From positions 1-64,000 of the forward strand of contig JAKFUG010000006.1 of the NCBI GenBank assembly GCA_021732785.1: 64,000 nt of DNA, given 5' to 3'. Of the stretch, positions 21,823 through 50,382 are shown in pieces (the first letter of the stretch is position 1; each line of letters begins with the position of its first letter). A model generated the notes under the pieces. It did not search any database. It was not told the origin of the DNA and was given only the letters and a program-made list of their open reading frames with translations. Source of the DNA: Planctomycetaceae bacterium (GTDB taxonomy: Bacteria > Planctomycetota > Planctomycetia > Planctomycetales > Planctomycetaceae). The position numbers and the translations under genes are program-made.

Positions 21823-22425
21823 ATGACGCTCACCCCGACAACCCGTGCGAGTTTGCTGCTGCGGCTTCGCGATCCCAAAGATCACGACGCTTGGGTGGAG
21901 TTCGTATCTCTCTATGAGCCAGTGGTTTACTGTGTCTTGCGAAGAGCTGGCTTGCAGGATGCTGACGCCCTCGAAATGTTGCAGGAGCTGTTTCTGGCGG
22001 TGAACCGAAACATCGGACGCTGGGAGCATGGGGCGGAACGTGGTTCATTTCGGGGTTGGTTGCGTCGAGTGACCCGGAACTTAGTCGTCTCCTGGGTGCG
22101 GCGGCAGAAGCGACAGGTGACGACTTCGTCCCTCGATCTCGATTCGTTGTTGGAGTCGCCGCCGGCAGTCGATGGTCCCGAGACGGATGAGTTTGATCGG
22201 GAACTTCGGCGAGCGCTGTTTCACCTGGCATCGGAACAGGTCCGGGGCGAAGTGCGTCCTCAGACATGGCAGGCTTTTTGGGAAGTCGCCGTCTCGGGGA
22301 CTTCCGTTGCGGAGGCCGCCACCAAACTGGGGATGACGGCCGGAGCAGTGTGTGTCGCCAAGTGTCGCATCATCGCGCGGCTCCGCGCAGTCGTCGCAGA
22401 AATCGACATGGAGAAGAGAACATGA
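21823..22425 (+). CDS. ECF-type sigma factor, 200 aa, coupled to a kinase
   Basis: Region 2 is visible as DALEMLQELFLAVNRNIGRW followed by FRGWLRRVTRNLVVSWVRRQ, and region 4 as QAFWEVAVSGTSVAEAATKL then AGAVCVAKCRIIARLR. The product would direct RNA polymerase to a dedicated promoter set. Its stop (22423-22425) overlaps the kinase start at 22422 in ATGA, implying translational coupling. The downstream protein begins with a zinc-binding anti-sigma-like motif, so the kinase probably controls this sigma factor. It is a paralogue of 33088-33702. Confidence 0.95.
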   Translation: MTLTPTTRASLLLRLRDPKDHDAWVEFVSLYEPVVYCVLRRAGLQDADALEMLQELFLAVNRNIGRWEHGAERGSFRGWLRRVTRNLVVSWVRRQKRQVTTSSLDLDSLLESPPAVDGPETDEFDRELRRALFHLASEQVRGEVRPQTWQAFWEVAVSGTSVAEAATKLGMTAGAVCVAKCRIIARLRAVVAEIDMEKRT

Positions 22426-25400
22426 ACAGTCTGTGCTCTCACGAACGGTTGGAACTCGCACTGGCGGGGTCGCTCAATGCTGACGACGAAGCGACGCTGC
22501 ATCTCCACCTGGAAGAGTGCGAGTTGTGTTTCGCGGAAATGGAGCGGCTTTCGGGAGGCGAGCAAGCCAGCCGCGAGATCGCCGCGATGCTCATGCCCAA
22601 TGAGTTCTACGATGCCGCGCCGCTGCGCGAGGAATGCTCCACGGCCGACTTCGTCGTCGATCACCTGGAGCCGTCCGATGACCCGGCGGTTCTGGGGCGG
22701 CTGGGTGGTTATGACGTGCTCGACATCATTGGTCGCGGCGGCATGGGCGTAGTGCTCAAGGGATTCGACCGCGAACTCAAGCGGTTCGTGGCCATCAAGG
22801 CGTTGGCTCCGCACCTCGCTCACAGTGCGCTGGCGAGAAAGCGGTTTGCTCGTGAGGCCCAAGCGGCGGCGGCGGTGGTCAACCTGCACGTCATTGCCAT
22901 TCATCAGGTTCAACCCAACGGGCAACTGCCGTTTCTGGTCATGCCACTGCTGACTGGCGAATCGCTCGCGCAGCGGCTGAAAGCGCGAGGGACATTGGAG
23001 CTGAAGGAGATTCTCCGCATCGGGATGCAGGCGGCCGAAGGACTCGCGGCGGCTCACGGGCAAGGGCTGATCCATCGCGATGTGAAACCGGCGAACATAC
23101 TGCTCGAAAAGGGAGTGGAACGCGCGGTGCTGACGGACTTCGGTTTGGCACGGGCCGCCGATGATATTTCGATGACGCGGTTGGGCGTCATCGCAGGAAC
23201 TCCGGAGTACATGTCGCCGGAGCAGGCCCGCGGTGAGGCGCTCGATGGCCGCTCGGATCTGTTCAGTCTGGGCTGCGTGCTGTACGAGATGGCGACCGGC
23301 GTGTCGCCGTTCCGCACCGATTCGACGATGGCCACGTTGCGGCGGATCGTCGATGAGCAGCCCGCCGCGATGGCCTCGCTCGTTCCCGAACTGCCGCCGT
23401 GGTTCAGCCACATCGTCGAGCGATTGCTGTCGAAAGACCCGACTCAGCGTTTTGCCTCCGCGAGCGAAGTCAGCCAATTGCTGGAGCAATGCCTGTCGCA
23501 TCTTCAGCAACCCACGTCCGTAACTCTGCCCGCGTCCCTTGTCCGTCACGCCGCTGGCCGCCGTTCGATTTTCAACATCACTCGGAAAGGAGTGTTCGCC
23601 ATGCTCGGAACGATTGGAATGACTTTGTTGGGGCTGGTGCTGCTGCAAGCAACGGAAGCGCCCGACATCAGCGGACAATGGACCAGCGACGAATGGGGGA
23701 CCGTGGTTCTTGAAGCGAAAGGGTCCGGAGAGTACGAGGGGACTTTCACCGGCACCGGCAAGGACAAACTGGCCCCGAGTAATGACCCACTCCGTGGGCC
23801 AGGTGCTGGCTCCGCTCTCCCTGGTGCTCCCGGTGCTGGCTTAGATCCCGCCGGTGGTTATCCCGGTGGTGCCGGTCTCCTTGGCATGCCCGGTGCCGGT
23901 CTCCTTGGTATGCCCGGTGCTCCCGGTGGTGCCGTTCTCCCTGGTATTCCCGGTGATCCCGGTGCCGGCTCCGTTCCACCTGGTGGTCCAGGTGACCTCC
24001 CCAATGGTCTTAGTGTCAGGTCCAAGTCGGGGCCTGACGCGCTCAACAGCTCCAACAAGACCAATCCTGGCGGAAGTGCTGGTCGGATGGGGGGCCCACT
24101 TGGAAGTGGTGGTGTCACAACTCCTGGCAGGATGTCTGGCGAGATGTCTGGCCCAATTTGGAGTGGTGGTGTCGCAACTCCTGGCGGGATGTCTGGCGAG
24201 ACGTCTGGCCAAATTTGGAGTGGTGGTGTCGCAACTCCTGGCAGGATGTCTGGCGGGTTGTCTGGCCAAATTTGGAGTGGTGGTGTCGCAACTCCTGGCA
24301 GGATGTCTGGCGGGTTGTCTGGCTCACCTAGCCTAGCAAACCCCGGCAAAGGCAAATCAGGCACCTTGCAGTTGAAGTGGTCACGACTCGAACGCCGCTT
24401 CAACGGGACTTGGGGAACGGGCGCAGATCGCCGTGGCACCATGTCGCTACGGCTGGTGGACAAGGAAATTCGCGGCGGATGGACGACAGACGAAGGCGCT
24501 CAACTGGAATCTGGTACTCCACTGCTCGGCGATCTGTTGTGGAAGCGAAGCGTGGTCAGCGTCCCGGACGGCGGTACTGTTTTACTAGGTGGCCTAGGAG
24601 TCCCGAAGACCGCCTACGCGGCTGCAAATTTACTAGGTGGCGTAGGGGGGCCGAAGACCGCCCGCGAAGCTGCGAAACCTTTAGATCGCCAGAACGCCCG
24701 CGCCGTTGTCGAAGCCTTTGTGGCGGCGGCACTTTCTGGCGATGGCGAGACGGTCATCACTCTCGCGAAGCTCAATCGAAGGGATCCGAAACGCCCCACC
24801 GAGCGAATCGAAGACAACATCAAGTTTTTCCCAGATCGCGAACACCTGCCGATGACGTCGGTCCATGTGAACGACGCCGAGAATCCAACGGACGCAATTG
24901 CAATTTCCAAACAATTCAAATGGGAACACCCGCAGAGCGAGCGAAAGACAGATGTCGTTGCGTGGTTCACACTCAGCATGAGTGAAGCAGGTTGGATTGT
25001 CACGAACATCTCCTTCGAGTGGATAGAAAGTACCGATGGCCTGTTGAAGAAGTTCCTCGAAGCCAATCCGAAATCAATCAGCGTGCCGCCGTTGACGAAA
25101 AGGCCAGCGAGCAATCAGTTTCACGATTTGCAAGGCGTGTGGGAATACATTTCTGTCGAGGCAGATGGCGTGGTCACGGAATACAAGACGCCTGTATCTT
25201 CCGAAGTGTTGTCCATCACCGACAATCTGTGGAAGATGAATAGTCTCATGGGTAGCGTCAATCGCGTCGAAATCGATGGCCGTAATCTCACTTTCCACGG
25301 CAAGACGTCAACCGGCAGTGCGAGCGGCGTTGGCGGAGATGTACCATCCATTGCATATGGAATCTATACGCTGGATGACGATTCGCTCGGCTTTTGCATG

Positions 25401-26315
25401 ACCCCGTTTGTACCAAGCTCACAAGTTGGCACCGGAGCAGATGCATTCGGGGGACCAGTTATCAAGCACCCACAGAATTTTGAAACCAAGGGGACGCAGA
25501 ATCTCGCCTACCGACTTCGTAGGTCCGCAGCGAAAGTCTCTGCAATCGAACAGCCTCTCGATCGCCAGAACTCTCGCGCAGTCGTCGAGGCCTTCGTTGC
25601 GGCGGCAATTGCAGGCGATGCGATGAAACTCCCGCCCGTGGATGGCCCGTCCGTGCATCCGAGGCTCGCCGATGACCGCTACACGAAGAGCGGCGTGCCG
25701 CTCGCGGAGCAAACTTGGCCCATGCCGCCGTGGGGCGCGGAGAAGGACGGGCTGAGCGCCGGCCTCCGCGTCATCGGCGACGCACGCATCGGCGGCGAGG
25801 TGAAGGTAGAACTGTGGGTGCGGAATTCCAGCGCGAAGGATGTGAAGTTTTCGCAGTGCCTGCGCGCGGATGTCGGGCTCTCCGTCGTGGCGAAAGACAA
25901 GGACGGGAAGGAGCACTCCGCGGACATCACGTCATTCGACGGGAAACCTGTTTTCGATCACCTGTTGCTGCCGCCGGGGCATGGCGTGAAGGTGAAGGAG
26001 TTCTCGGTGAAGTTCGGTGCGGGGAAGAACGATAAATTGGAATCGGGTTGGGTGAATCTCCAACTCACGCCGGGCGACTACAAGCTGCGCGCGGTGTGGA
26101 GCGACACCACTTCGCGGGGTGCCGCTGAAGGCGAGTGGACCGGAAAACTCACGACGGGCGAAGTGGCGTTCAAACTCGCTGCGGCGGATGCGGGCGCGGA
26201 TGCCGGGAAGCCTGCCGCCAAGCCGCCGGGCGCAAACATCGTCAAGCTCCCCGACGACCAATACGTGAAGTCGGGCTTCCCGGTGGATGAACTGGCTGGC
26301 GAGGGCGTGATGTGA
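22422..26315 (+). CDS. Ser/Thr protein kinase with anti-sigma motif and modular ectodomain, 1297 aa
   Basis: Residues 5-45 carry a zf-HC2-like His/Cys motif (HLHLEECELCFAEM). The kinase domain (about 95-380) has GRGGMGVVLKG, AIKAL, HRDVKPANILL, DFGLARA and GTPEYMSPEQ, so it should be active. A membrane segment (GTIGMTLLGLVLLQ, about 390-411) separates it from the ectodomain: an ISGQWTSDEWGTVVLEAKG module (about 417), a collagen-like Gly-rich stretch (about 454-530), four 19-residue repeats (about 560-637), an NTF2-like LDRQNARAVVEAF module (about 753), a lipocalin-like LQGVWEYISVE module (about 903), a second LDRQNSRAVVEAF start (about 1045) and a terminal beta-rich domain. It probably senses envelope conditions and signals to the coupled ECF factor. 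Confidence 0.95.
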   Translation: MNSLCSHERLELALAGSLNADDEATLHLHLEECELCFAEMERLSGGEQASREIAAMLMPNEFYDAAPLREECSTADFVVDHLEPSDDPAVLGRLGGYDVLDIIGRGGMGVVLKGFDRELKRFVAIKALAPHLAHSALARKRFAREAQAAAAVVNLHVIAIHQVQPNGQLPFLVMPLLTGESLAQRLKARGTLELKEILRIGMQAAEGLAAAHGQGLIHRDVKPANILLEKGVERAVLTDFGLARAADDISMTRLGVIAGTPEYMSPEQARGEALDGRSDLFSLGCVLYEMATGVSPFRTDSTMATLRRIVDEQPAAMASLVPELPPWFSHIVERLLSKDPTQRFASASEVSQLLEQCLSHLQQPTSVTLPASLVRHAAGRRSIFNITRKGVFAMLGTIGMTLLGLVLLQATEAPDISGQWTSDEWGTVVLEAKGSGEYEGTFTGTGKDKLAPSNDPLRGPGAGSALPGAPGAGLDPAGGYPGGAGLLGMPGAGLLGMPGAPGGAVLPGIPGDPGAGSVPPGGPGDLPNGLSVRSKSGPDALNSSNKTNPGGSAGRMGGPLGSGGVTTPGRMSGEMSGPIWSGGVATPGGMSGETSGQIWSGGVATPGRMSGGLSGQIWSGGVATPGRMSGGLSGSPSLANPGKGKSGTLQLKWSRLERRFNGTWGTGADRRGTMSLRLVDKEIRGGWTTDEGAQLESGTPLLGDLLWKRSVVSVPDGGTVLLGGLGVPKTAYAAANLLGGVGGPKTAREAAKPLDRQNARAVVEAFVAAALSGDGETVITLAKLNRRDPKRPTERIEDNIKFFPDREHLPMTSVHVNDAENPTDAIAISKQFKWEHPQSERKTDVVAWFTLSMSEAGWIVTNISFEWIESTDGLLKKFLEANPKSISVPPLTKRPASNQFHDLQGVWEYISVEADGVVTEYKTPVSSEVLSITDNLWKMNSLMGSVNRVEIDGRNLTFHGKTSTGSASGVGGDVPSIAYGIYTLDDDSLGFCMTPFVPSSQVGTGADAFGGPVIKHPQNFETKGTQNLAYRLRRSAAKVSAIEQPLDRQNSRAVVEAFVAAAIAGDAMKLPPVDGPSVHPRLADDRYTKSGVPLAEQTWPMPPWGAEKDGLSAGLRVIGDARIGGEVKVELWVRNSSAKDVKFSQCLRADVGLSVVAKDKDGKEHSADITSFDGKPVFDHLLLPPGHGVKVKEFSVKFGAGKNDKLESGWVNLQLTPGDYKLRAVWSDTTSRGAAEGEWTGKLTTGEVAFKLAAADAGADAGKPAAKPPGANIVKLPDDQYVKSGFPVDELAGEGVM
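23795..24005 (+). repeat. Collagen-like Gly-Xaa-Yaa coding stretch
   Basis: This segment of the 1297-aa kinase gene encodes about 70 residues dominated by PGA, PGG and LGMPGA triplets, with 27-bp near-identical DNA repeats around GCCGGTCTCCTTGGCATGCC. It sits just outside the membrane and could form a flexible or trimeric stalk. Confidence 0.8.
24102..24329 (+). repeat. Four tandem 57-bp repeats (19-aa units) in the kinase ectodomain
   Basis: The phrase CAACTCCTGGC recurs at 24118, 24175, 24232 and 24289, exactly 57 bp apart. The encoded unit is SGGVATPGRMSGGLSGQIW with small changes between copies. The reading frame is kept, so copy number can vary without breaking the kinase. Confidence 0.93.
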
Positions 26316-26693
26316 AACGACGTGCAAAACCGTCTGTCGCTTGGATATCCGTCACCGTTTGTGGCTTGCGCTTCACGGCTGAACTCCCACTGGATCGAAT
26401 CATAGGCGTAACGCACCGTGCCTATGACCGTCAAGGGATGACGCCGCTGCGAAAAAAGTCGTCCGACTCTTACTGACAAGTCACAGCCGAAGTGCGGATC
26501 TTACGGCCAAGAGAAGATTTTGATGCACGGCATTTCACCGGGTCGGCGTCGAACTAATTCTGTCCTCTTGGTGTGATTCGAACATTCTTATTGAAAATGT
26601 TGATCGCCGTTGAACCTCCGCCAGGTCTGCTCCGACACTTGAAGTAGCGAGCAGGCGAAGGGCCGGATCGCCGATTCGTTCGAGGGGGAGTAC
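26316..26693. other. Intergenic region before the second ECF operon
   Basis: About 380 bp without a credible gene. It should contain the promoter of the ECF/membrane-protein/protease operon; no clear motif was recognised. Confidence 0.5.
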
Positions 26694-30494: not shown

Positions 30495-30641
30495 ATGATC
30501 CTCAACTTCGAAAACCTTGAATCCCTGTGTCTTGGAGATGTCAGGATCAGTCCAGCGGCCATTGAGAAACTCAAGGAGCGAATTCAAAATCAAACCTCCG
30601 ACAAACAACTGCGATGGGCATACCGACAGCGAAAGCAATGA
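30495..30641 (+). pseudogene. Orphan C-terminal fragment of the LRR-type secreted protein
   Basis: These 48 codons (ILNFENLESLCLGDVRISPA to QLRWAYRQRKQ) match the last 48 codons of the 306-aa protein at 55484-56404 with only a few changes. No signal peptide or upstream repeats exist here, so it is a detached C-terminal piece 26 kb from its relative. An ATG in frame at 30495 leaves expression possible but unlikely. Confidence 0.85.
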
Positions 30642-30765
30642 TCCACACTAAAGGTGTCACCTACTCTTCCGCCTGTCTGTCACCCCTTGCTCTCGCAGAT
30701 AACCACACATGATTCAGGACCATTCCTTGTCGCATTTCCTCAAGAGACATGACGCGCTGGACACC

Positions 30766-33087: not shown

Positions 33088-33702
33088 ATGCCCGAGTTTC
33101 CGGAAACCAGCCACAGCCTCATCGCCAGGGTCAAAGACCTTGGTGATGGAGCGGCGTGGACGGAGTTTCTGGGAATTTACCAGCCGGTGGTTTTTCGGAT
33201 GGCCCGGCGGCGGGGCTTGCAGGACTCCGACGCGCAAGACGTTATGCAGCAGGTGTTTCTGTCGATCTACAAGTCGATCGAGGGCTGGATTCCGGGAGAC
33301 TTGCAGCCGCCGTTTCGGGCCTGGTTGACGACGATCGCTCGCAATGCGATCACGAAAGCACTGACTCGGCGACCTCGCGACGCGGCCACCGGTTCGACCT
33401 CGATGGTGGAGCTGCTGGATGCTCAGCCCGATCCGCAGGAAACCACCGCCGAGATTTTGGCGGAAGCCCGGAAAGAACTGATCCGCTGGGCCACCGAGCA
33501 GATTCGCTCCGAGTTCAGCGAAGCGACCTGGAACGCCTTTTGGCGGACGGCCATTGAAGGCGTGCCGATCGCCGAAGTTGCGAAATCAACGGGACGCTCC
33601 GCCGGGGCGGTGTATGTCGCGCGGTATCGAGTGATCGCCCGGTTGAAGGAAAAAGTTTTGGAAGTCTCGCAACTCTGGGACTTGCAGGAGAATCAATCAT
33701 GA
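33088..33702 (+). CDS. ECF-type sigma factor, 204 aa, coupled to the giant kinase
   Basis: Region 2 shows GLQDSDAQDVMQQVFLSIYK and FRAWLTTIARNAITKAL; region 4 shows NAFWRTAIEGVPIAEVAKST and SAGAVYVARYRVIARLKEK. AGGAG lies eight bases upstream of ATG 33088. The stop overlaps the kinase ATG at 33699 (ATGA). It is a clear paralogue of 21823-22425 and belongs to the same planctomycete type of kinase-linked ECF factors. A duplicated upstream block shared with the BlaI-type gene lies directly in front and may hold a common control element. Confidence 0.96.
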   Translation: MPEFPETSHSLIARVKDLGDGAAWTEFLGIYQPVVFRMARRRGLQDSDAQDVMQQVFLSIYKSIEGWIPGDLQPPFRAWLTTIARNAITKALTRRPRDAATGSTSMVELLDAQPDPQETTAEILAEARKELIRWATEQIRSEFSEATWNAFWRTAIEGVPIAEVAKSTGRSAGAVYVARYRVIARLKEKVLEVSQLWDLQENQS

Positions 33703-39700: not shown

Positions 39701-41528
39701 TGCCGATTGGCGCTACTCGCTCGGTGCGAACGGTGATCTCGATCTCTTCGATGCTGATGATGCGAAAGGGGAATCAACTTCGCGAGCCAAGTATTCGCTT
39801 AAAGGAAAAGCTCTGTGCTTGGCATTGAATGCGAAGAAGGCCGACCTTCCACGACCGGTGTCAGCAACCGGCGAAGTTCCGCAGGAAGGTGTGCAGTACA
39901 TTGTTCTTGAATCGGATGAAGAAGCGCAGTCGAGCGAAGCGGCAAAGGCCCCCGACGCCGGTCGTGGAACACGCGAAGGCCATCCACAAGCTCCAGAACA
40001 ACCTGCGCTGAGCAAGACGTTGAAACAACTTCAAGGCGAATGGCGAGTCACCCGTCAAATCCACGCGAACGGCGAAGAAGAAGGCCGGTCCGGTAACTCA
40101 ATTTTGGAGTTTAACGGTAACCGCATCGTCAAGCATGGAGGCGAACCTGGTGATGCGATGCTGATTCAGGCCGACGAGTCTCATTCACCCGTGCGTGTTG
40201 AGATCGCCCTGGGATCTACGCAAGATTCTGTGCTTGGTCTGCTGAGTGTTGAAGGTGACATGCTGATTCTCTGCTACGGGAAACATCAAAAAACACCCGC
40301 TCCCGAAAGTCGTCCTGAGAAGCTTCAATGGGTCTCCGGTGTCTGGTACATGGAACTGCAACGAGTGAAGCCCGGCGAGACGATCGTTCCTTTGAAACCA
40401 AAGAGCCAATCTCAGCCGCAGGCAGCACCTTCGAATCAAGCTTCACCGAATGCGATCAGCGTGCCTTCGCAAGCCAGCAGCGAGGCTGCGCGGCCAGCGA
40501 CAGCCGCACCTCTAAAAGTAGCCGACACCGGAAAGCTGGAACTCGAAGTGAAGGAGCCTGAAAAGTTGCCGCCGGAGAAGGAACCCTTCACCGCCTGGGG
40601 CAAGGAAGTCGGCGGCCTGCAAGCGGGCTTTTGCATAACCAACGCGGATGACATTCACATCAGCGGAAACGTCAAAGCAGTCGTGAAATTGCGGAACGTC
40701 AGCAAAGAGACGATCAGTGCCTCGGCCGTGCCTTTGTGGGTGCTGATGAGTCCTCCGAAGGTTGTTGATTCGCAGGGCAAGCCTGTCCGCACCACAGATG
40801 GGCCGTATCCGTTGCTCGGCTTCAAACTGAAACAACTGACTCTAAAGCCGAGCGAGGCGGTTGATGTCGACAAGACCGAAATTCCCGTTGCGGAATTGAA
40901 TCAAGAGGTGAAAGTGGCGGCGGGTAAGGTGCCTGATCGACGAATCATCCACGTTGAGCCAGGAAAGTACAAAGTCAACTGGACAGAAAGTTTTGTGCAA
41001 GAACATGGTGAACTAGCAACAGGTACCGTCGAATTCGAGGTGAAGGCCGCGAAGGAACCCTTCACTGCCTGGGGCAAGGAAGTCGGCGGTCTGCAAGCGG
41101 GCTATTGCATTACAAACGCGAATGACATTCACATCGGTGGGAGGGTCAATGCGGTCGTTAAACTGCGGAACGTTAGCAAGGAAACGATCAGCGTTTCGGC
41201 TTGGCCCTTGTGGTTTGTGAGCCCTGACAGGGTTGTTGATTCGCTGGATCAGAGTGTCCGCGCCACGAATCCGCTGGTGACGTCTTTCGAAATCATTCCT
41301 GCCAAACTCACTTTGAAACCGGGCCAGACAGTTGATGTGGGCAAGGCCAACATGAACGTGGTGGCACTGAATCAAGATGTGAAGGTGCCGGGAGGGATGG
41401 TCTCGATGCACACGATCCACGTTGAACCCGGAAAGTACAAAGTCAATTGCATCGGTTTTGTGCAAGAGCATTCCGCCCTTGGAACAGGAACTGTGGAATT
41501 CGAGGTGAAGGCCGTGGAGAAACCGTAA
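33699..41528 (+). CDS. Giant Ser/Thr kinase with WD40-like and repeated sensor modules, 2609 aa
   Basis: A zf-HC2-like motif (DHVSDCERCRQLLEV) opens the protein. The kinase domain (about 100-370) has GRGGMGVVFKA, AIKML, HRDVKPSNILL, DFGLARA, GTPQYMSPEQ. Three membrane segments follow (about 404-434, 444-466, 505-527). The ectodomain contains: ISGQWTSDEWG module (530); a module shared with the BlaR1-like protein (SAHIGGNVDS to EYDLRQGRVLEL, about 707-800); NTF2-like LDRNNARAVVEAF (1282) and LDRHNARAVVEAF (1822); WD40-like blades (about 1431-1811, FSPDGTLLAVGTG, FSPSGKLLATSGG); two lipocalin-like modules (1960, 2108); and two EPFTAWGKEVGGLQAG modules (2294, 2453). It is about double the size of its paralogue and probably integrates several envelope signals. 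Confidence 0.95.
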   Translation: MTIQNPQTCLSAELLRQLSHDELSPEELKDVEDHVSDCERCRQLLEVPQSDSQWQDEIVPILRTPLESPHVAGDHDERGCEGESLESILRLLGPTDDPHMLGRIGSYEVVGVIGRGGMGVVFKAYEGALNRFVAIKMLLPHLAASGAARKRFAREGKAAAAVIDDNVMPIYSVAEWQGVPYLVTQYSRGATLEKRIRDQGPLELKEILRIGMQTARGLAAAHAQGLVHRDVKPSNILLDGTVERALLTDFGLARAVDDASITRTGIIAGTPQYMSPEQARGGSVDARSDLFGLGCVLYAMCTGRPPFRADSSYAILRMITDDEPRSIREVNPDIPEWLCLLILRLMAKSPDARFGNALEVAALLEQCLAHVQQPTSVPLPASLVPHSMESFMKSSEPIECEPRIPWYWAVALLIPIGVVVVGSTFALLLLYYGGSQPLPPEARIPVTVAFPISAIASFWLWRWALQSLLMRLAQGQQPTSIPLPASLVNHVAGRRSIFTVTRKGVLAMLGTIGMTLLGMALWQATEAPEISGQWTSDEWGTVVLEAKGSGEYEGTFTGTGSDKPATDDPARLFDGGALLRPVPDIAIRKGKSGTVRLKWSRVERRFNGTWRNDVDPTSLSKELIKKSVLESKLSVSGTQETADDRTGRMSLRLVDNEIRGAWTTSKDAQRKSGTPRLADLTWIRTVLPQTRPVENEAKAAKRSTSPKSAHIGGNVDSVMVVHDDVDPHYAFYYPGEFGTSSSGSQNTQSLSWMDEGSITLKGGRTFGYHRESTDPFHLRVNGKEYDLRQGRVLELRSDDSVEQLKLFPTLSTANTPAALAKLITSTRGMNEEPFTLEKTRLQLEAAEAQLRDLLKTHAPTHALVVEVSRSVEALQHRIKELTKHPGGAAGEAAKPLDRKDLDPKSLSAAAKRFNSDTAEVRSKIFAPPIPDLTVERLCEGFRQSATYYRGLGKRQVADALEKIAVSGELPNEAIGDLIGSDFHAQDKMGRTISRQVVPALFLPDDTTSTGRSLVVLRPLELIYRKDGPVSKDYGDQFAQGTPMAPGGEQPLDRKLPPFAIDEDEDSRGSDSPQILMKHIADCQTRGDDAGVLRCWTDQPIKQLATTYLLMSIASLDDFETNTEAKRPAGYEDQMTGLKELLRDEVKDLQAIKPLIAHPLTQQVIKELGKDFAVLGNATTNSPSVKTLTGVMSEQLADPRRFVKKFRKVVQTDGGPKDNEKITVFDYRIELTDDKALATHKSNRWIMGLIKTQSGWQINEPWREADAKSVLDAKNVPGLDETLDRNNARAVVEAFVVEALARDGEAVKTLTRGQQPEIVAAPFLDLKIAGLPIQSVYVNDVTKPTRALATSDVVKLEGRDGFLVFSLSMSDFGWFITDIHFESEESAERELKKFLEANPKSISVPRQANSEAAKSATGSADAPPNTKMSMSTRVKLFTTGDGKKVACSPDGKLIAVASGGKAFPAAEGWKRTVEILDAETGKTAVSISLTTQDEDALLAATEGPRDFEVGTLAFSPDGTLLAVGTGLGQVKLFESRTGKLVLSLDDEAARLADQKTPEKLKSLKRAMGSVGSLAFSPSGKLLATSGGSFDDAAPNWGGVHELGELATGPGRLKVWAVQSGTLRNDLVGHSHANAVAFSADGAYLASVGSWQGGGGSDHGSGVILWAPNTGIKLRTFPVNTNGGTWSVAFSPKDKLMAISSRTFDKDNDTSTSSICLLRTATGILEWKQTVSGWGHPVAFTPDGKSVGVLCGGEAIRFFDTETGTLKHHLGLADPWKEARWNDFALLSQGRLAIAGADNLRQGKVEIWDFTGPNIKASAIEKPLDRHNARAVVEAFVAAMISGDYLTAKTIIGGPPPYNTMELFGDLAQLPVQSVYVNDSANPTRALATSELFKFSKSDQRGEFMVYFRLSMRESGWILKDILWGSEEHVDRELKKFLEANPNAISVPPQGQAQPRAARVNPLVGHWKLVKLADMPVDQLAGATVVIDEHRFKMHVPSQKGLYADWRYSLGANGDLDLFDADDAKGESTSRAKYSLKGKALCLALNAKKADLPRPVSATGEVPQEGVQYIVLESDEEAQSSEAAKAPDAGRGTREGHPQAPEQPALSKTLKQLQGEWRVTRQIHANGEEEGRSGNSILEFNGNRIVKHGGEPGDAMLIQADESHSPVRVEIALGSTQDSVLGLLSVEGDMLILCYGKHQKTPAPESRPEKLQWVSGVWYMELQRVKPGETIVPLKPKSQSQPQAAPSNQASPNAISVPSQASSEAARPATAAPLKVADTGKLELEVKEPEKLPPEKEPFTAWGKEVGGLQAGFCITNADDIHISGNVKAVVKLRNVSKETISASAVPLWVLMSPPKVVDSQGKPVRTTDGPYPLLGFKLKQLTLKPSEAVDVDKTEIPVAELNQEVKVAAGKVPDRRIIHVEPGKYKVNWTESFVQEHGELATGTVEFEVKAAKEPFTAWGKEVGGLQAGYCITNANDIHIGGRVNAVVKLRNVSKETISVSAWPLWFVSPDRVVDSLDQSVRATNPLVTSFEIIPAKLTLKPGQTVDVGKANMNVVALNQDVKVPGGMVSMHTIHVEPGKYKVNCIGFVQEHSALGTGTVEFEVKAVEKP

Positions 41529-43940: not shown

Positions 43941-44324
43941 ATGCCTGATTCGTCTGATCTGAGTCGCCGCGAGCGGCAGATTATGGATGCCGTCTTTGCG
44001 CTCGGGGAGGCGACTGTCAATCAAGTCGTCGAAACCATTCCGTCGCCGCCGACGCCGATGGCGGTTCGCAGGATGATGCACATTCTGGAAGAGAAGGGGC
44101 ATCTGCGACGGCGCGAGAGCGGACGCGAGGTGATCTATGTGCCTCGCCAGACCAAGGGCAAAGCGGGGCGTCTCGCGTTCGAGCAAGTGCTGGAGACGTT
44201 CTTTGGCGGTTCGCTTGAAGAGGCTCTCGCGGCGCATCTGCATTCGCGGAAGGACCAGGTGTCAGCCGACGAACGTGAGCGGCTGATTGCGTTGATCGAA
44301 CAAGCTCAGCAGGAGGGCCGGTAA
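43941..44324 (+). CDS. BlaI/MecI-family transcriptional repressor, 127 aa
   Basis: The winged-helix pattern is clear: LSRRERQIMDAVFALGEATVN, then PTPMAVRRMMHILEEKGHL, then REVIYVPRQTKGKAGR, and a C-terminal dimerisation helix with VLETFFGGSLEEALAAHL. Length fits the family. In staphylococci such repressors are cut when a coupled BlaR1/MecR1 receptor is activated; here the BlaR1-like gene starts one base after the stop. GGAGGAAC lies about ten bases before ATG 43941. A palindrome at 43856-43877 may be its operator. The regulated genes are probably this pair and perhaps the secreted-protein genes downstream. Confidence 0.95.
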   Translation: MPDSSDLSRRERQIMDAVFALGEATVNQVVETIPSPPTPMAVRRMMHILEEKGHLRRRESGREVIYVPRQTKGKAGRLAFEQVLETFFGGSLEEALAAHLHSRKDQVSADERERLIALIEQAQQEGR

Positions 44325-44325
44325 C

Positions 44326-47300
44326 ATGAATCGCACGATATTGACCGTGGCTGGGGTGTTGAGCGCGTCGAGCCTGCTGTTGGTGGATTCCGCCATCAAA
44401 GGGACGGTGCTGCTTGCGCTTGCGGCTGTTGTGGCCTTGATCCTGAGACGCGACTCGGCGGCGACTCGACATCTGGTGTGGCTGCTGGCGATTGTCGCAA
44501 TGCTGGTGGTGCCGCTGTTGTCGGCGATGTTGCCGCAATGGCGCGTGCTGCCGGCTTGGATGAGTTCATCGAGACCGGTTGTTGCGGATATCAGTCCGCC
44601 GTCAATCTCCAAGTCCCCAGGTGGAGTGATTGAATCGCCTGAGAGAGCGGCACCAGTGGAAGTCGAGCGGCCATCGGCAACGGTCTTTCAGCCGGCCACT
44701 GTGTTGCCGGATTCGCAGCCCGCATTGGCGACACCGGAAGCTGTTCCAGCGCCGGCGGTGCGGAGTTGGAATTGGATCAATGCGTTGCCGCTGGTGTGGG
44801 CGATTGGTTTTGCCGTGCTCATGCTGCGGCTGTCGGCCGCGCGATGGATGCTCTGGAATTCCGAACGGCTCGCGACGGTCGTATGTAGGCGAGTTGCTCC
44901 GCAGCTCGCATTCGAGTCGCGGAGCGACTCGGCTACGGCGCACGACCCCATCGTAACAGCGATGGAAGCCATCTGCTCGCAACTTGGAATCGTTCGCCCG
45001 GTCGCTCTGCTCATTCACCCGGACAAGACGATTCCCGTGGTCTGGGGCATTTTTCGTTGTCGGCTGATGCTCCCCGCGGCGGCGCGACAGTGGAGCGACG
45101 AGCAACTGCAATCTGTGCTGCTGCACGAACTGGCTCACATCAAACGCCGTGACACCATCGTGCAACTGCTGGCACAGGTCGCGTGTGCTCTGCACTGGTT
45201 CAATCCGTTGGTGTGGTTCGCCGCCTGGCGACTGGATGTGGAACGGGAGCGGTCCTGCGACGATCTGGTGTTGGCGAGCGGCATCAGGCCGTCCGCTTAC
45301 GCGGGGCATTTGCTCGATGTCGTCACGGGGCTCTCGCCAGCCCGTTGGACGCAAGCCTGTGGTTTGGCGATGGCTCGCCAGTCGTCGCTCGAAGGCCGTC
45401 TGACCGCCGTGCTCGGCAAGGATCTCAATCGTCGCGACGTGTCCGTGGCCCTCGCGGGACTGGCGCTGGCCATTGCGGTGGGTATCGCGGTCCCCATCGC
45501 GATGCTCCGTGCGGCGGATGAGAAATGGAATCCGCACCAAGCCGCGCACATCGGCACGAACGACTTCTCCGCCTATTGCGTCCACAGCGGGAAGGACGCT
45601 TCGTTCGTCATCGCTTATCACGGCGACTTCGGCTCGGCGACCGAGAGTGTCACGAATCCCAAGACGCGCACTTGGACCGACTCTGGCACGATTACCGCGA
45701 AGAAACCCGGCATCGCGCTCAGCTTTCATCGCACAAACACTGCGCCAGGCAAACTCAGCATCACGACCGCACCCGCCGAAGGCCGCGACCTCAGCAAGCC
45801 CGCGCCGCCTCCTCGCGAGTTCGGGCAGAAGGAATACGACCTCGCGAAGGGCCGCGTGTTTCTGCTCAGCGACAATGGCAATGTCCGTCAGCTCGACATC
45901 GCCACTCCCGACGTCACTGACCAGGCATCCGCGAAAAAACTCGCCGCGCTCATCGCCGCCATCCCGCCGCAGGATCGCGAGGATGTGGCGTTGACGCCGA
46001 ACCACACCGGCAAACTCGCGCCGGAGACTATCGCGAGACTTAAATGGGGCGAGCCGGTGAGCGGCCTCCGCATGGCGCTCGCGTATCCGCCAGCACTCGG
46101 TGACGCGCTGCTCGGCAAGAAGCCGCATTTCGAACTCGTTGTGCAAAACGTGTCGGAGAAAGAGGTTCATTTCCTCGCGAGCGATGAAGCTCCCAACCCG
46201 CGGAGATTGCTGATCCGCGAAGGAGAGCGCATCGTCCAGGGGCTTTCCGATCCGGAATTGTCGGCGGCGGATTGGAAGCTGCAGCCGGGCCAGTGCGGCG
46301 TGCTCCGCCTGTATACGAAAGAGGAGCGCAACAAAGCCGGCACGATCCCAAGCTCAGCCATCGAAAGCGACCTGAGCAAGATTGGCCGCTACCACGCCAT
46401 CGTGCAGATGGAGATCGCGAAAGCGCCGCCGGGTGCGTGGACGGGCAAGCTCGTCACTGGACAGTCACGCGGCTCCGCAGACGTGGCAGCCGCGCCGGCT
46501 CCGATGCACAAGGACGCCCGTGCGTATTACGAAGTCTGGCAGCGCTACGCGCGGGCGAATGGCGACATTCCCGGCGCGCTGGTCGGCGAACTGGCGGCGG
46601 CGGTGAGGCAGTTCATCAAATACAACCCGACTTGGGAGACGGTGCCGAAGCTCAACGCCCTGCTCCCGCGTCTCGACGTCACACGCGACTGGAAACCTGC
46701 CGACGCCATCGCGCTGCTCGATGAAGTGGCGGGCATTCAGGATTCGCCGATTAAGGCGGCACCGTGGAGGGGAATGAGACACACGATTCGCCAAGGCGAG
46801 GCGCTGCCGAAAAAGTTCACCGATGCGACGTGGGGCGAATCGCAGCCGAATGGACTGCGCGCGGCGTGGGTGCTGGAGCCGAACGCGACGGAACATCGCA
46901 TCGGCGCGGCGCTCAAGGCGCGGCTGCTCGTACAGAACACGGGGAGCGTCTCCGTCGTGCTCCAAGTGCCGACGTGGCATCAAGGCTGGGTGAAGGCCCG
47001 CGACGCGAAGGGCAAGGAGGTCGAAGCCTCCGGCCTCGAGTGGACGACGCTCGCGCAGCTTGTTCCCGTGCGTCTCGCACCGGGCGAGTACATCGAAATC
47101 AACACACCCGGCATCGGCTTTGGACCGCGTGCGGGAATGGGGCCGTGGGCCGGGCCGCGCGTTGGCTCGAATGTGCTCGCGAAGGCAGGCGACGAACTGA
47201 CGCTCACGCACGGCCTCGTGCCGCTCGACGGTAGCGAAGTTGGCGTCAGCGAAGACGACCCACACGTCTCCGGGCCGGGCTGGTGGCTGGCGCACGTCAG

Positions 47301-50300
47301 GTCGCGCCTCAATCGCGAACTCCCGTTGCCCGCCGACGCCGCTGAGCGCACGCGTCTGCTCGACCGCGCAGTGCGCGAGCTAGTTGCCACTGCCCCCTCA
47401 GCGGAAGAAACCACCGCATTCATCGCCGACAAGACTCCGGATGCTCTCGATGCGCTGGCCAATCGCCTCGTCGCTCGCGTGGATGTGGTGTCGTTCAGCG
47501 GCAAGCTGCCGACTGCTCCGGCGAAGTTCCGCGTGCTCGCCGCCGACGTGAACGCCGACAAGCAACCGCGCGTCGTGCTCGGCCCCGGCGAGTATCCGCT
47601 GAGCAAGGGGACGGCCGATCGCGGCGCGGCGACGTTGAAAATCGTTGGCAGGTCGATTGGCAATCGCCACACGAACGACGCTCAACTTTTGTTCGAGGCC
47701 ACCGAGGCGACCGGAAAGCTACCACCGGACTCTCACAAACTCGAAGTCCCCGACGGCCGGGGCACATGGGCCATCGTCTGCCGCCCCGGTTCAGGCGTCT
47801 TTTATCTGCTGAGCAAAGGCACGGTGCGGAAGATCGACTACAGCAACCCGCGGAAAGTCACCGACACACTGGCGAACGACCTCCCCGCCGAGTTCCGCGA
47901 CGAAGTGAAGCGCCAGCTCGACATACACGAAATCTCCGCCGCACAGCAGGCGGAAATTTTCGAGAAGCCAGCCGCTCCGGCAGCAACGCCCGACTCGAAG
48001 ACTGGCGCGAATGCACCGGCCAAGGACGAAGCTCAGCCAGCTTCTGAAGCGCCGAAAACGCCGGAGAAGGAACCCTTCACCGCCTGGGGCAAGGAAGTCG
48101 GCGGCCTGCAAGCGGGCTTGGGCTTCAAAGCGGGCGAGAAGCGAGTTTACACCCACGGCGATGCTGCCACATTGCAGGGTGAGACAGCCACACTAGTCGT
48201 TCGGCTTCGTAACGTCGGCAAGGAGGAAATCAAGTTTCAGTACCTCCGCCAATACTTCATTGAGAACCCGCCCACCGTGACGGATGCCAAGGGCAAATTG
48301 AAGCAGCTCGGCAAGGTCTCCGCTTTCGGAGAACACATTCCGCAAGAAGTGAAGCTGGCGCCGGGGAAGGAAATCGAGCTTTACGAATGGAAGCCATATC
48401 TCGGATCGGGAAACGAAGAAGGAATGCCACAATATCCCTACATATTTGGGGCTGGAAAGTTCCAGGTTCAGTATGAGAAGGTTTTCGGAAACTCATCGGC
48501 AGGCACAATCAAGCTCGATCCCGCACTGGAAAATCTCGCCACAGGACAGTTGGAATTGGAGGTGAAAGCTCCTGAGAAGGCGCCGGTGGAAAAAGAACCC
48601 TTCACCGCCTGGGGCGAACCCATCGGCGGTCTGCAAGCGGGTTTCGGCTTTCTTCCCGGCCAGCAGCGGGCCTACAGCCACGGCGAAACGGTTCGACTGG
48701 TCGTCCGGGTTCGCAACGTCGGCAAGGAGGAGGTCAAGTTCCAGTACTACCCCACATTCCTCTCCGAGAACTCGCCAACTGTGCTAGACGAAACAGGCAA
48801 GCGAGTTTCCCTCCGCCGTAACACGCTTCGCCTAGTGCGCCAAGTTCCCAAGGAAGTGAACTTGGCGGTGGGGAAGGAAATCGAACTCTACGAGCGAGAG
48901 CTGCGTCTGGCTTCCGGAAACGAAGACGCAGGCGAGCTGAAAACCCGAGACATTTTTCCAACAGGGAAGTTTCTGATTCAACACGAGCAGGTTATTGGCA
49001 CCCCATTGCAAGGCTACTCAGCGCAAGCCTCCGACAAGTATGACCCCACTCTGGAAGAACTCGCCACCGGGAAGTTGGAACTGGTCGTCAAAGAGGTCCC
49101 AGCCAAGCACGACGAAACTCTCGCTGCCGACGAGCAAGCTAGGAGACACAAAGAGCAGCTCCAAGGAAGCTGGCAAGTCGTCGAAGCCGATATCGGTGGA
49201 ACGCATGCTCCGAGGGAACGCAGCAAGGAACAAGTTTGGACATTCGTTCGCGACAAGCTTGCCTTCGATTTCGGCGACGGCGATCCGATGGAAATGACCT
49301 ATCGCATCGACGAGAAGCAAGAGCCGGCGACGATCGACCTGTCCCCCCTTGGCCCGCGCGAAAAGGGGAATCTGTACAAGGGCATTTACGAGCTTGACGG
49401 CGATCAACTGAAGGTCCATTTCACCCGCAGTTCCGCGGCCGACTCCCGGCCTACGGAGTTCAAGCCAAGCGGAAAAAATCGCGGCATGCGGTACTTCGTC
49501 CTGAAGCGGGCTCCCAAACCCGATGCGCCAGTCGAAGTCAATCCGAAATCGATCAGCGCCACTCCGATGGGCGGCCCTTCGACGTTATCCGTAGTTACTA
49601 CAGCCGACGATGCCGATCACGTCTTTCGGAATGCCATCAAGGCCATCACCGAGAACTATGCCCGCATTCCGAAGTTGTCCGTCACAATTGAGGAACTCAG
49701 CATCAGTCCGTCGGTTGAAAAGCGGGAGACGAAGACCTCAGTCACCGATGAAATCTCGATCAGCGCCACGGCAGCGCCCGTATTCGTTAGCCGCTCGATC
49801 GTGAAACTCAATGGCGCTGACTTGACTTGCGATCGTTATGAAAGAGTCGGCAATGAATTGAGCTTAAGCTCAACGATCTCGCGAACGGGTAAAACGTGGA
49901 CCTTCCATGAGCATGCCACGAATGTGAAACGCACGAAATCAACAAAGGAGATGGGGAGTTACTTGCCGATTGACCCGCGAGAATTCGGTGGACTCGATCA
50001 ACGTTTCGGATTACTGGAACAAATGCGGCGGTCCAAGGCACTTTCTCTGCGCAAGCAGGGAGACATCACCACGATCGAGACCGAGATCACCGATCCGCCG
50101 GAGTACGGCTACGATCCCAAACAGCGATTCACCTACGCGCTTGATGCCTCCAGGAACTATTTGCCGATCAGCGTCATTCGACACTATGGCGACGGCTCGC
50201 TGAATACCTTGACCGAGTTCACTTACCAAGAAGTGCAACTTGGCAAAGCGTGGTTCATGAAGTCAATTTCCACAAAGTACTTCCTGCAGGAAGTTGCCGC

Positions 50301-50382
50301 GAAGGATGCGCAATCAAAGGGCTGGCATCAGTTTCTTTTGCACAACGTGGTTGAGCCCATTCAGGTCGAACCAATGAAGTAA
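44326..50382 (+). CDS. BlaR1/M56-like membrane protease receptor with giant modular ectodomain, 2018 aa
   Basis: Residues 1-400 are BlaR1-like: membrane segments (VLLALAAVVALIL, LLAIVAMLVVPLLS, ALPLVWAIGFAVLML), zinc-protease motif HELAHIKRRD (about 268) and ERERSCDDLVL holding the third ligand, then a last membrane segment (VALAGLALAIAVGIAVPI). Instead of a penicillin-binding sensor there are about 1600 residues of modules: one shared with the giant kinase (AHIGTNDFSAYCVHSG, about 407), weaker WGE...GLR modules (571, 835), two strong EPFTAWG...GGLQAG modules (1248, 1422), a lipocalin-like LQGSWQVVEADIGG (1609), and a LolA-like C-terminal domain (about 1762-2018). It likely cleaves or triggers loss of the BlaI-type repressor on sensing an unknown ligand. 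Confidence 0.93.
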   Translation: MNRTILTVAGVLSASSLLLVDSAIKGTVLLALAAVVALILRRDSAATRHLVWLLAIVAMLVVPLLSAMLPQWRVLPAWMSSSRPVVADISPPSISKSPGGVIESPERAAPVEVERPSATVFQPATVLPDSQPALATPEAVPAPAVRSWNWINALPLVWAIGFAVLMLRLSAARWMLWNSERLATVVCRRVAPQLAFESRSDSATAHDPIVTAMEAICSQLGIVRPVALLIHPDKTIPVVWGIFRCRLMLPAAARQWSDEQLQSVLLHELAHIKRRDTIVQLLAQVACALHWFNPLVWFAAWRLDVERERSCDDLVLASGIRPSAYAGHLLDVVTGLSPARWTQACGLAMARQSSLEGRLTAVLGKDLNRRDVSVALAGLALAIAVGIAVPIAMLRAADEKWNPHQAAHIGTNDFSAYCVHSGKDASFVIAYHGDFGSATESVTNPKTRTWTDSGTITAKKPGIALSFHRTNTAPGKLSITTAPAEGRDLSKPAPPPREFGQKEYDLAKGRVFLLSDNGNVRQLDIATPDVTDQASAKKLAALIAAIPPQDREDVALTPNHTGKLAPETIARLKWGEPVSGLRMALAYPPALGDALLGKKPHFELVVQNVSEKEVHFLASDEAPNPRRLLIREGERIVQGLSDPELSAADWKLQPGQCGVLRLYTKEERNKAGTIPSSAIESDLSKIGRYHAIVQMEIAKAPPGAWTGKLVTGQSRGSADVAAAPAPMHKDARAYYEVWQRYARANGDIPGALVGELAAAVRQFIKYNPTWETVPKLNALLPRLDVTRDWKPADAIALLDEVAGIQDSPIKAAPWRGMRHTIRQGEALPKKFTDATWGESQPNGLRAAWVLEPNATEHRIGAALKARLLVQNTGSVSVVLQVPTWHQGWVKARDAKGKEVEASGLEWTTLAQLVPVRLAPGEYIEINTPGIGFGPRAGMGPWAGPRVGSNVLAKAGDELTLTHGLVPLDGSEVGVSEDDPHVSGPGWWLAHVRSRLNRELPLPADAAERTRLLDRAVRELVATAPSAEETTAFIADKTPDALDALANRLVARVDVVSFSGKLPTAPAKFRVLAADVNADKQPRVVLGPGEYPLSKGTADRGAATLKIVGRSIGNRHTNDAQLLFEATEATGKLPPDSHKLEVPDGRGTWAIVCRPGSGVFYLLSKGTVRKIDYSNPRKVTDTLANDLPAEFRDEVKRQLDIHEISAAQQAEIFEKPAAPAATPDSKTGANAPAKDEAQPASEAPKTPEKEPFTAWGKEVGGLQAGLGFKAGEKRVYTHGDAATLQGETATLVVRLRNVGKEEIKFQYLRQYFIENPPTVTDAKGKLKQLGKVSAFGEHIPQEVKLAPGKEIELYEWKPYLGSGNEEGMPQYPYIFGAGKFQVQYEKVFGNSSAGTIKLDPALENLATGQLELEVKAPEKAPVEKEPFTAWGEPIGGLQAGFGFLPGQQRAYSHGETVRLVVRVRNVGKEEVKFQYYPTFLSENSPTVLDETGKRVSLRRNTLRLVRQVPKEVNLAVGKEIELYERELRLASGNEDAGELKTRDIFPTGKFLIQHEQVIGTPLQGYSAQASDKYDPTLEELATGKLELVVKEVPAKHDETLAADEQARRHKEQLQGSWQVVEADIGGTHAPRERSKEQVWTFVRDKLAFDFGDGDPMEMTYRIDEKQEPATIDLSPLGPREKGNLYKGIYELDGDQLKVHFTRSSAADSRPTEFKPSGKNRGMRYFVLKRAPKPDAPVEVNPKSISATPMGGPSTLSVVTTADDADHVFRNAIKAITENYARIPKLSVTIEELSISPSVEKRETKTSVTDEISISATAAPVFVSRSIVKLNGADLTCDRYERVGNELSLSSTISRTGKTWTFHEHATNVKRTKSTKEMGSYLPIDPREFGGLDQRFGLLEQMRRSKALSLRKQGDITTIETEITDPPEYGYDPKQRFTYALDASRNYLPISVIRHYGDGSLNTLTEFTYQEVQLGKAWFMKSISTKYFLQEVAAKDAQSKGWHQFLLHNVVEPIQVEPMK

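What the first reader, a model, noticed from the sequence alone, without database searches (positions are those of the whole stretch)
22422..50382. Two kinases and a BlaR1-like receptor share one set of ectodomain modules
The 1297-aa kinase, the 2609-aa kinase and the 2018-aa BlaR1-like protein carry the same extracytoplasmic pieces: EPFTAWGKEVGGLQAG, AHIG...EYDLxxGRV, lipocalin-like LQGxW, SGQWTSDEWG and LDRxNARAVVEAF, plus the linker EANPKSISVP. Different cytoplasmic outputs (kinase plus ECF sigma, protease plus BlaI) thus read similar sensor parts. I know of no described system with this arrangement.
Basis: partly seen in the sequence, partly recalled or inferred. Interest (0 to 1): 0.8.

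Follow-up and report, generated by a model that had tools for sequence, protein, structure and literature searches.

The report
Sensor tails swapped between bacterial receptors
In a planctomycete-type bacterium, two kinase receptors and one BlaR1-like protease receptor lie near each other and share pieces of their presumed sensing tails that were moved by DNA recombination, which could let very different signalling outputs listen with related sensor parts.

Summary
The two kinases and the M56/BlaR1-like protein share extracytoplasmic-type modules pairwise, not as one set. An Ig-like 'FTAWG' module is in all three (diverged in kinase 1); EYDL and TIGR03067 (LQGxW) are significant in kinase 2 and the protease only; SGQW and the NTF2-like LDR module are in the kinases only. 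In this 6.7-Mb genome every match found to these five modules lies in these three genes. DNA shows how they are shared. Kinase 1 is a chimera: its ECF-kinase-membrane head is 85.8% identical over 2,026 bp to another genus's ECF-kinase with an unrelated tail, while its 3' end is 91.6% identical over 557 bp to a giant ORF colinear with the BlaR1-like ectodomain. A 61-bp module-entry seam is identical between kinase 2 and the protease, whereas the rest of those modules is at chance for synonymous codons. Elsewhere the module sits on M56 receptors, ECF sigma fusions and another ECF-linked kinase. Best reading: constant transducer heads, tails exchanged by recombination. Sensing is inferred. New variant of a known kind.

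The parts
21823..22425 (+). ECF sigma factor 1, start of the kinase-1 head
   Evidence: Sigma70_r2 E 2e-10; overlaps the kinase by ATGA at 22422
22422..26315 (+). Kinase 1 (P0001): HxxxCxxC segment, Ser/Thr kinase, one TM, split SGQW, LDR, weak TIGR03067-like stretch, LDR stump, WG
   Evidence: Pkinase E 1e-44; TM 442-460 and motif
21748..23773 (+). Kinase-1 head tract (ECF to start of SGQW), 85.8% nt identical over 2,026 bp to L137, whose tail is unrelated
   Evidence: dS 0.46 over the 22422-23770 part
23640..23834 (+). SGQW module, first half; second half at 24417-24557, split by Gly/Pro-rich tandem repeats
24669..25091 (+). LDR (NTF2-like) module
   Evidence: fold
25539..25625 (+). LDR stump ending at the tail junction
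25626..26182 (+). Kinase-1 3' tract with the WG module (25707-26171), 91.6% nt identical over 557 bp to L045
   Evidence: dS 0.15
26182..26347 (+). Continuation, 82.5% identical to a different place in the same L045 ORF, running past the kinase stop
33088..33702 (+). ECF sigma factor 2
   Evidence: Sigma70_r2 E 4e-13; overlaps kinase 2 by ATGA at 33699
33699..41528 (+). Kinase 2 (P0002): HxxxCxxC segment, kinase, TM region, SGQW, EYDL, LDR, WD40-type propeller, LDR, TIGR03067 x2, WG x2
35256..35768 (+). SGQW module of kinase 2
35790..36248 (+). EYDL module of kinase 2
37524..37913 (+). LDR module
39144..39539 (+). LDR module
39570..40307 (+). Two TIGR03067-like stretches (39570-39857, 40014-40307)
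   Evidence: (singly below cut-off)
40523..40880 (+). Kinase-2 tract 90.8% nt identical over 358 bp to the WG-array fragment L076
   Evidence: dS 0.24
40570..40630 (+). 61-nt seam identical to 48059-48119 in the M56 gene
40572..41510 (+). Two WG modules (40572-41045, 41049-41510)
43941..44324 (+). BlaI-type repressor
   Evidence: Penicillinase_R E 1.3e-24
44326..50382 (+). M56/BlaR1-like receptor (P0003): M56 domain, EYDL, WG x4 (one partial), TIGR03067, C-terminal part of unknown kind
   Evidence: HELAH at residue 267
45508..46008 (+). EYDL module
46021..46473 (+). WG module of M56 type; partial one at 46810-47190
48061..49092 (+). Two WG modules (48061-48567, 48589-49092) inside the clade rich in ECF-fusion modules
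49147..49464 (+). TIGR03067 domain
   Evidence: 83.4 bits

Best explanation
Three membrane receptors keep constant transducer heads and carry variable tails built from a small pool of modules. Two heads are ECF sigma + zinc-finger-like Ser/Thr kinase + TM + SGQW; one is BlaI + M56 protease. SHOWN by sequence: the modules are homologous; the kinase tails contain DNA closely related to long module-array genes of other genera; in relatives the same Ig-like module sits on M56 receptors, on ECF sigma factors fused to a TM, and on another ECF-linked kinase. INFERRED: (1) exchange occurs by recombination, helped by short conserved seams at module starts. (2) The tails lie outside the cytoplasm and bind ligands or partner proteins, the Ig-like module by protein contact, NTF2-like LDR and TIGR03067 perhaps as small-molecule pockets. 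(3) Tail engagement changes the kinase and frees or activates the neighbouring ECF factor, held by the N-terminal HxxxCxxC segment and/or modified by phosphorylation. (4) In the M56 receptor it activates the protease, which cuts BlaI and derepresses its targets. The outputs would then listen to overlapping, not identical, inputs.
For: Kinase 1 is a chimera: head 21748-23773 is 85.8% identical to L137 over 2,026 bp, where the tail is unrelated, and 3' tract 25626-26182 is 91.6% identical to L045, an ORF colinear with P0003 residues 630-1221 at 68%; the LDR stump ends at 25625; dS 0.46 for the head, 0.15 for the tail. Kinase 2 40523-40880 is 90.8% identical to WG-array fragment L076. Seam: 61/61 nt identical between kinase 2 and the M56 gene, flanks 13/60 and 18/60, chance of identical codons 2e-8 given the residues; over the four kinase x M56 pairs identical codons 50/59 (22.6 expected) in the seam, 47/121 (46.9 expected) elsewhere. 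Tree of 61 modules: at least 6 changes among STK, M56 and ECF outputs, 5 without the inferred M56 rows. Matches to the five modules in this genome lie only in these three genes.
Against: No function was tested. The M56 head of L045 lies beyond its contig start and was not found in that genome, so that donor class is inferred. Direction of transfer is not fixed; the tree is unrooted and output labels are clustered on it (shuffles as low in 0 of 200). Pooled over 388 module pairs the seam effect is mild (0.56 vs 0.47), and against M56 receptors of other genomes small (177/419 vs 141.4 expected). Hydropathy gave two TM peaks in kinase 2, which would put its tail inside unless a third weak segment counts. 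Kinase carriers of WG are few: 1 of 31 ORFs outside this genome.
Confidence: 0.6

Rival explanations
1. The modules are old, vertically inherited planctomycete surface domains; sharing reflects ancient ancestry and ordinary tandem duplication, without exchange between receptor classes.
For: Outside the seam the kinase-2 and M56 modules are at chance for synonymous codons, so they are old; output labels are clustered on the module tree.
Against: Kinase 1 has a head and a tail with different nearest relatives and different dS; 61-nt identical seam; M56-gene modules nest among ECF-fusion modules with 99/98 support.
Confidence: 0.12
2. The tails are structural or adhesive arrays (spacers, cell-surface contacts, partner docking) and do not carry input for signalling; exchange is neutral repeat turnover.
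For: Very long repeat-rich tails; the closest whole-domain fold matches of WG include adhesion-type Ig domains such as RbmA as well as BsuPI; WG also occurs on ORFs without a transducer found, 9 of 31; dN/dS of the kinase-1 tail (0.07/0.15) is higher than that of the head (0.07/0.46).
Against: The tails sit on heads that control transcription factors (ECF, BlaI), and most WG ORFs examined, 20 of 31, have a detected transducer domain.
Confidence: 0.2
3. The seam is conserved at synonymous sites because of selection or codon bias on that stretch, not because of recombination.
For: Seam codons are also more alike than expected against ECF fusions of other genomes (450/718 vs 276.7), where the rest is raised too (1188/2482 vs 949.6).
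Against: Against other M56 receptors the excess is small (177/419 vs 141.4); the long tracts of 557 and 358 bp reach far beyond the seam.
Confidence: 0.08

Closest known systems
BlaR1/MecR1-BlaI/MecI (M56 peptidase receptors)
   Same: M56 membrane protease with HExxH next to a Penicillinase_R repressor gene
   Different: No penicillin-binding/class D beta-lactamase sensor domain found; a tail of EYDL, WG and TIGR03067 modules instead
ECF sigma factors controlled by a neighbouring Ser/Thr kinase (EcfP/PknT, EcfK/PknS; PMC8999054 passages, PMC13147305 listing)
   Same: ECF gene directly upstream of a transmembrane Ser/Thr kinase
   Different: Kinases here carry an N-terminal HxxxCxxC segment and very long modular tails; control by phosphorylation not tested
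Planctomycete kinases and ECF factors with periplasmic WD40/TPR tails (PMC11032199, PMC8567305; passages)
   Same: Modular repeat tails on planctomycete transducers, with architectures thought to arise repeatedly
   Different: Here one module family crosses M56, ECF-kinase and ECF-fusion receptors, with the DNA joints still visible
Extracytoplasmic sensor domains shared by several receptor classes (CHASE-type; recalled, search listing only)
   Same: One sensor-type domain family on several outputs
   Different: Other domains and outputs; recent local chimeras

Membership tests
BlaR1/MecR1 (P0003) | M56 peptidase domain with HExxH | tested here: met
   PF05569 E 3e-31; HELAH at residue 267
BlaR1/MecR1 (P0003) | BlaI/MecI-type repressor next to it | tested here: met
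   43941-44324 Penicillinase_R E 1.3e-24
BlaR1/MecR1 (P0003) | C-terminal penicillin-binding / class D beta-lactamase-like sensor domain | tested here: not met
   No such family among the Pfam hits of P0003 at E<=1; blaR1_generic 72.5 bits against a cut-off of 400. So an M56 receptor, not BlaR1 proper
ECF-linked Ser/Thr kinase (P0001, P0002) | Kinase gene joined to an ECF sigma gene | tested here: met
   ATGA overlaps at 22422 and 33699
ECF-linked Ser/Thr kinase, EcfP/ECF43 type | ECF factor without the acidic DAED motif in sigma 2.2, activated by phosphorylation | tested here: inconclusive
   Read by eye: DALE and DAQD at that place, acidic residues partly kept; phosphorylation not testable
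Zinc-finger anti-sigma domain (zf-HC2) in the kinases | HxxxCxxC and zf-HC2 score | tested here: inconclusive
   Motif in P0001, P0002 and L066; PF13490 17.1 bits in P0002 against a cut-off of 22.2
TIGR03067 | Score over the curated cut-off | tested here: met
   P0003 77.8 bits and P0002 44.5 bits against 40.15; not met for P0001 (12.2 bits); P0002 stretches singly 32.3 and 23.5
BsuPI-like Ig fold (WG module) | Whole-domain fold match and family profile match | tested here: inconclusive
   3isy Z 8.0, 3.3 A, 115 of 117 residues, tied with other Ig-like rows; profile vs PDB E 0.0063; no Pfam family for a single module at E<=10
NTF2-like fold (LDR module) | Helices plus curved sheet of the NTF2/SnoaL type | tested here: inconclusive
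   Model pLDDT 80.4; lists dominated by NTF2/ketosteroid-isomerase/CaMKII-hub entries, best Z 8.0, 3.6 A, 104 aligned; no Pfam or PDB sequence hit

The most novel reading that the evidence does not exclude
Planctomycetes run a modular receptor system in which a short conserved DNA seam at the entrance of a module acts as a recombination patch, so that tail segments are moved repeatedly among three transducer classes (M56 protease + BlaI, ECF-linked kinase, membrane-anchored ECF sigma factor). This locus would be a natural receptor-diversification hotspot where one ectodomain array feeds several outputs.
Probability: 0.27. Interest if true: 0.8.

Novelty: new variant of a known kind. Interest (0 to 1): 0.6.

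Why it matters
Sensor sharing in bacteria is mostly inferred from old domain families. Here joints are still visible: a kinase gene whose head and tail have different nearest relatives and ages, and a 61-bp identical seam between a kinase and a protease receptor. That makes testable whether ectodomains can be transplanted between kinase, protease and sigma-factor outputs, and how planctomycetes build giant signalling proteins. It also gives tentative folds to two modules that no Pfam family matched (WG Ig/BsuPI-like, LDR NTF2-like).

Tried and rejected
Rejected: 'one set of modules in all three'. Literal motif matching was not enough either: P0001 has a WG module without the FTAWG string.

Tried: seam conservation pooled over module pairs gave a mild effect (0.56 vs 0.47 synonymous identity over 388 of 2,145 pairs). 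The strong effect is specific to kinase-2 x M56 pairs; those four pairs share modules and are not independent. I do not claim a universal seam.

Tried: island boundaries. The left flank 4.1-12.4 kb is syntenic with congener G002; synteny was lost after that and the right edge was not found. Whether the block is one acquired island stays open. GC along the window varies 0.54-0.65 with no clean step.

Tried: the M56 head of L045 in its genome G047; the best M56 relatives there are only 34-42% identical and on other contigs.

Tried: phylum search with the 45-row WG alignment: 6 of 294 genomes, own included, at E<=1e-8; where more than 12 candidates were found only 12 were scored, so this is a lower bound.

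The named-organism scan gave 43 pattern stretches and 7 confirmed loci; L078 holds the same ORF as L048 and was counted once. L051 and L052 are near-identical copies from one genome and were counted as two.

Own errors: a text filter dropped the long L077 ORF from the protein files used. The tree was rebuilt with it; the codon tests do not contain it. In one search the L076 fragment was labelled M56; it is 'other'. Modules under 110 residues, including that of L066, are not in the trees.

Of the sixteen extra own-genome stretches fetched only four were used. No membership was inferred from families missing in the fold lists.
Full report
WHAT WAS CLAIMED.

THE GENES. Kinase 1 (P0001, 22422-26315), kinase 2 (P0002, 33699-41528) and the M56 receptor (P0003, 44326-50382) are long open genes. 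Pfam gives Pkinase E 1e-44 and 3e-43 and Peptidase_M56 E 3e-31. Each kinase starts inside the end of an ECF sigma gene (ATGA overlaps at 22422 and 33699; sigma region 2). A BlaI-type repressor (Penicillinase_R E 1.3e-24) ends one base before the M56 gene. Both kinases carry an N-terminal HxxxCxxC motif as in zinc-finger anti-sigma factors (the likeness is recalled), with a sub-threshold zf-HC2 hit in kinase 2.

WHAT IS REALLY SHARED. The all-against-all comparison shows a patchwork. P0001-P0002: head, TM + SGQW, LDR. P0002-P0003: FTAWG blocks (called WG here) and the AHIG..EYDL block. P0001-P0003: no BLASTP hit at 1e-3. TIGR03067 (LQGxW) is significant in P0002 and P0003, not in P0001 (E 0.17). 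P0001 does have a diverged WG module, and a 27-nt linker match to P0003 (92.6%).

ONLY HERE IN THIS GENOME. The whole 6.69-Mb genome (99.63% complete) gave 6 WG, 4 LDR, 2 EYDL, 3 TIGR03067 and 4 SGQW matches, all in these three genes; a seventh WG, at 46810-47190, came up with the larger alignment. Four of these searches used sequences of the genes themselves, so presence there is by construction; the absence elsewhere, and the TIGR03067 result (an outside model), are the informative parts. Of two congeners, G001 (100% complete) and G002 (64% complete), neither has WG, LDR, EYDL or SGQW. Over relatives, own genome included: WG in 17 of 99, LDR in 3 of 99, EYDL in 1 of 59, SGQW in 4 of 99 (same calls).

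WHAT THE MODULE SITS ON ELSEWHERE. I opened the stretches around WG matches in other genomes and scanned with Pfam the ORFs without an M56 or kinase hit, except the two inferred ones. Of 31 WG-bearing ORFs, 10 are M56 receptors (L046, L047, L054, L058-L060, L062-L065), 9 are ECF sigma factors with a tail (L048-L053, L074, L075, L080), 1 is a kinase with an ECF gene next door (L066), 2 are long ORFs cut at a contig start and inferred to be M56 tails (L045, L077), and 9 have no transducer found (L055, L056, L057, L061, L067, L068, L076, L079 and a fragment in L075). In the ECF fusions scanned a hydrophobic segment lies between sigma domain and WG, with more than one candidate in L051 and L053 (L052 not scanned). 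The SGQW carriers in three other genomes (four ORFs, L137-L140) are all kinases, each with an ECF gene or ECF-like fragment next door: SGQW belongs to the kinase head.

KINASE 1 IS A CHIMERA. From 75 bp upstream of its ECF gene to the start of SGQW, 21748-23773, it is 85.8% identical over 2,026 bp to L137 (G033); after SGQW the L137 kinase runs into an unrelated tail of about 230 aa. At the other end, 25626-26182 is 91.6% identical over 557 bp to L045 (G047); homology then jumps to another part of the same L045 ORF (8687-8846) and runs past the kinase stop. The LDR stump ends at 25625, one base before this tract. The first part of the L045 ORF is colinear with P0003 residues 630-1221 at 68% identity. 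Nei-Gojobori dS is 0.46 for the head (22422-23770) against L137 and 0.15 for the tail against L045; dN is 0.067 and 0.071. Two parts of one gene have different relatives and different ages; the tail is under weaker constraint by this measure.

KINASE 2 AND THE M56 GENE. Kinase 2 40523-40880 is 90.8% identical to L076, a WG-array fragment in a Gemmataceae MAG (beside what looks by eye like transposase remains); dS 0.24. The match begins in what reads as the last strand of a WG module otherwise missing in kinase 2. Between kinase 2 and the M56 gene, 40570-40630 and 48059-48119 are identical over 61 nt, with 13/60 and 18/60 identity in the flanks; given the residues, the chance that all codons agree is 2e-8 under these genes' codon use. 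Over the four kinase x M56 module pairs, identical codons at shared residues are 50/59 in the seam (22.6 expected) and 47/121 elsewhere (46.9 expected). The modules are old, the seam is young. Results the other way: pooled over 388 pairs the seam effect is mild (0.56 vs 0.47), and against M56 receptors of other genomes small (177/419 vs 141.4).

MODULE TREE. A careful ML tree of 61 WG modules puts the two terminal M56-gene modules inside a 99/98 clade of 20 rows, 13 of them from ECF fusions. The kinase-1 module is sister (99/97) to an L045 module inside a 100/99 clade that otherwise holds M56 or inferred-M56 rows. The kinase-2 modules lie with the L076 fragment (100/100). The least number of changes among STK, M56 and ECF is 6, or 5 without the inferred M56 rows. 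Labels are still clustered (shuffles as low in 0 of 200), the tree is unrooted and several rows have long branches: exchange recurs, but is not free mixing.

FOLDS. WG: AlphaFold2 on 45 sequences, pLDDT 84.9, pTM 0.80, a beta sandwich. A whole-domain match is B. subtilis proteinase inhibitor BsuPI (3isy, Z 8.0, 3.3 A, 115 of 117 residues), tied with other Ig-like domains (top row 2x3a Z 8.5); the profile also finds 3isy by sequence at E 0.0063. LDR: pLDDT 80.4 on 5 sequences; lists dominated by NTF2-like structures (best Z 8.0, 3.6 A, 104 aligned). Z near 8 is modest, so both are fold suggestions. LDR-like domains also occur as short ORFs with a hydrophobic leader, read by eye, in L069 and L070, which fits an extracytoplasmic site.

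MECHANISM. Shown: homology, chimeric DNA, one module on several outputs. Inferred: tails outside the cytoplasm (kinase 2 needs a third TM that fell below my threshold), ligand or partner binding, kinase to ECF control, protease to BlaI control. The most economical model is constant heads with swapped tails. Sensing is untested; a structural role of the tails is the main rival.

LITERATURE. Ten searches ran: Planctomycetes+BlaR1+M56; Planctomycetes+ECF+protein kinase+anti-sigma+sigma factor; TIGR03067, 0 papers; Planctomycetes+ECF+C-terminal extension+Gemmata; sensor domain and domain shuffling; BlaR1+BlaI+M56+sensor domain (84); EcfP+PknT; extracellular sensory domain and CHASE; planctomycete kinase architecture and sigma factor; Planctomycetes+domain shuffling+signal transduction+paralog. 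PMC11032199 (abstract and passages) reports planctomycete kinases with periplasmic WD40/TPR tails and no well-supported clades of like architectures across species; it mentions no M56, BlaR1, BsuPI or gene conversion. PMC8567305 (passages) describes ECF factors with WD40 and paralogisation. PMC8999054 and PMC8103513 (passages) cover kinase-controlled and extended ECF factors. PMC7593790 (passages) covers BlaR1. None of these passages or listings describes one module family on BlaR1-type, ECF-kinase and ECF-fusion receptors. Jogler 2012, Wiegand 2020 and Mahajan 2020 (its DOI recalled) are not held and could contain related remarks.

VERDICT. A well-supported case of tail exchange between receptor classes: a new variant of known domain shuffling, with an unproven but testable signalling consequence.

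Noticed in passing
window 41584-42771, 51839-52684, 53591-54778, 55457-56404: Four genes share a nearly identical front part (300 nt at 90% identity) but have different back parts (DUF2092-like in 41584, LRR-like in 55457): a second mosaic family, lying right behind kinase 2 and behind the M56 gene.
   Followed up: partly
window 41584-42771 and L140 2912-8131: The DUF2092-like back part of the 395-aa protein resembles repeated segments in the tail of a G033 ECF-linked kinase (E 1e-18), so a separate protein here matches a receptor tail module there.
   Followed up: partly
L070 3262-3792 (-) and 9139-9672 (-): In G035 a relative of the four-copy front part and a stand-alone LDR-like protein lie about 6 kb apart.
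   Followed up: no
window 41524, 50360, 51779, 52685, 53531 (76-nt repeats): Five gene starts share a repeat across intergenic sequence, ribosome-binding region and first codons, another possible cassette seam.
   Followed up: no
window 23868-24323: Collagen-like Gly/Pro-rich and 57-nt tandem repeats (19-aa units) split the SGQW module of kinase 1; the module is nearly continuous in L137.
   Followed up: no
window 27663-30446: Protein with two trypsin-like stretches and a PDZ domain, behind another ECF-like gene (26694), between the two kinases.
   Followed up: no
window 17953-19533, 20247-21422 and 60554-61555: An IS-like element with many copies at contig ends of this genome and a phage-type integrase; the 60554 ORF reads by eye as a second tyrosine recombinase. 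They flank the block.
   Followed up: partly
window 30495-30647 vs 56258-56410; 52405-52704 vs 53251-53550: Further direct repeats of 91% and 94% identity in the same region.
   Followed up: no
window 56882-60152: A third kinase (57588-60152), 49-53% identical to the kinase domains of the two receptors, behind a sigma-like ORF (by eye); none of the module matches fell in it.
   Followed up: no
L076 8000-11600: WG-array fragment without a start or transducer, next to transposase-like reading frames (by eye): module DNA may travel with mobile elements.
   Followed up: no
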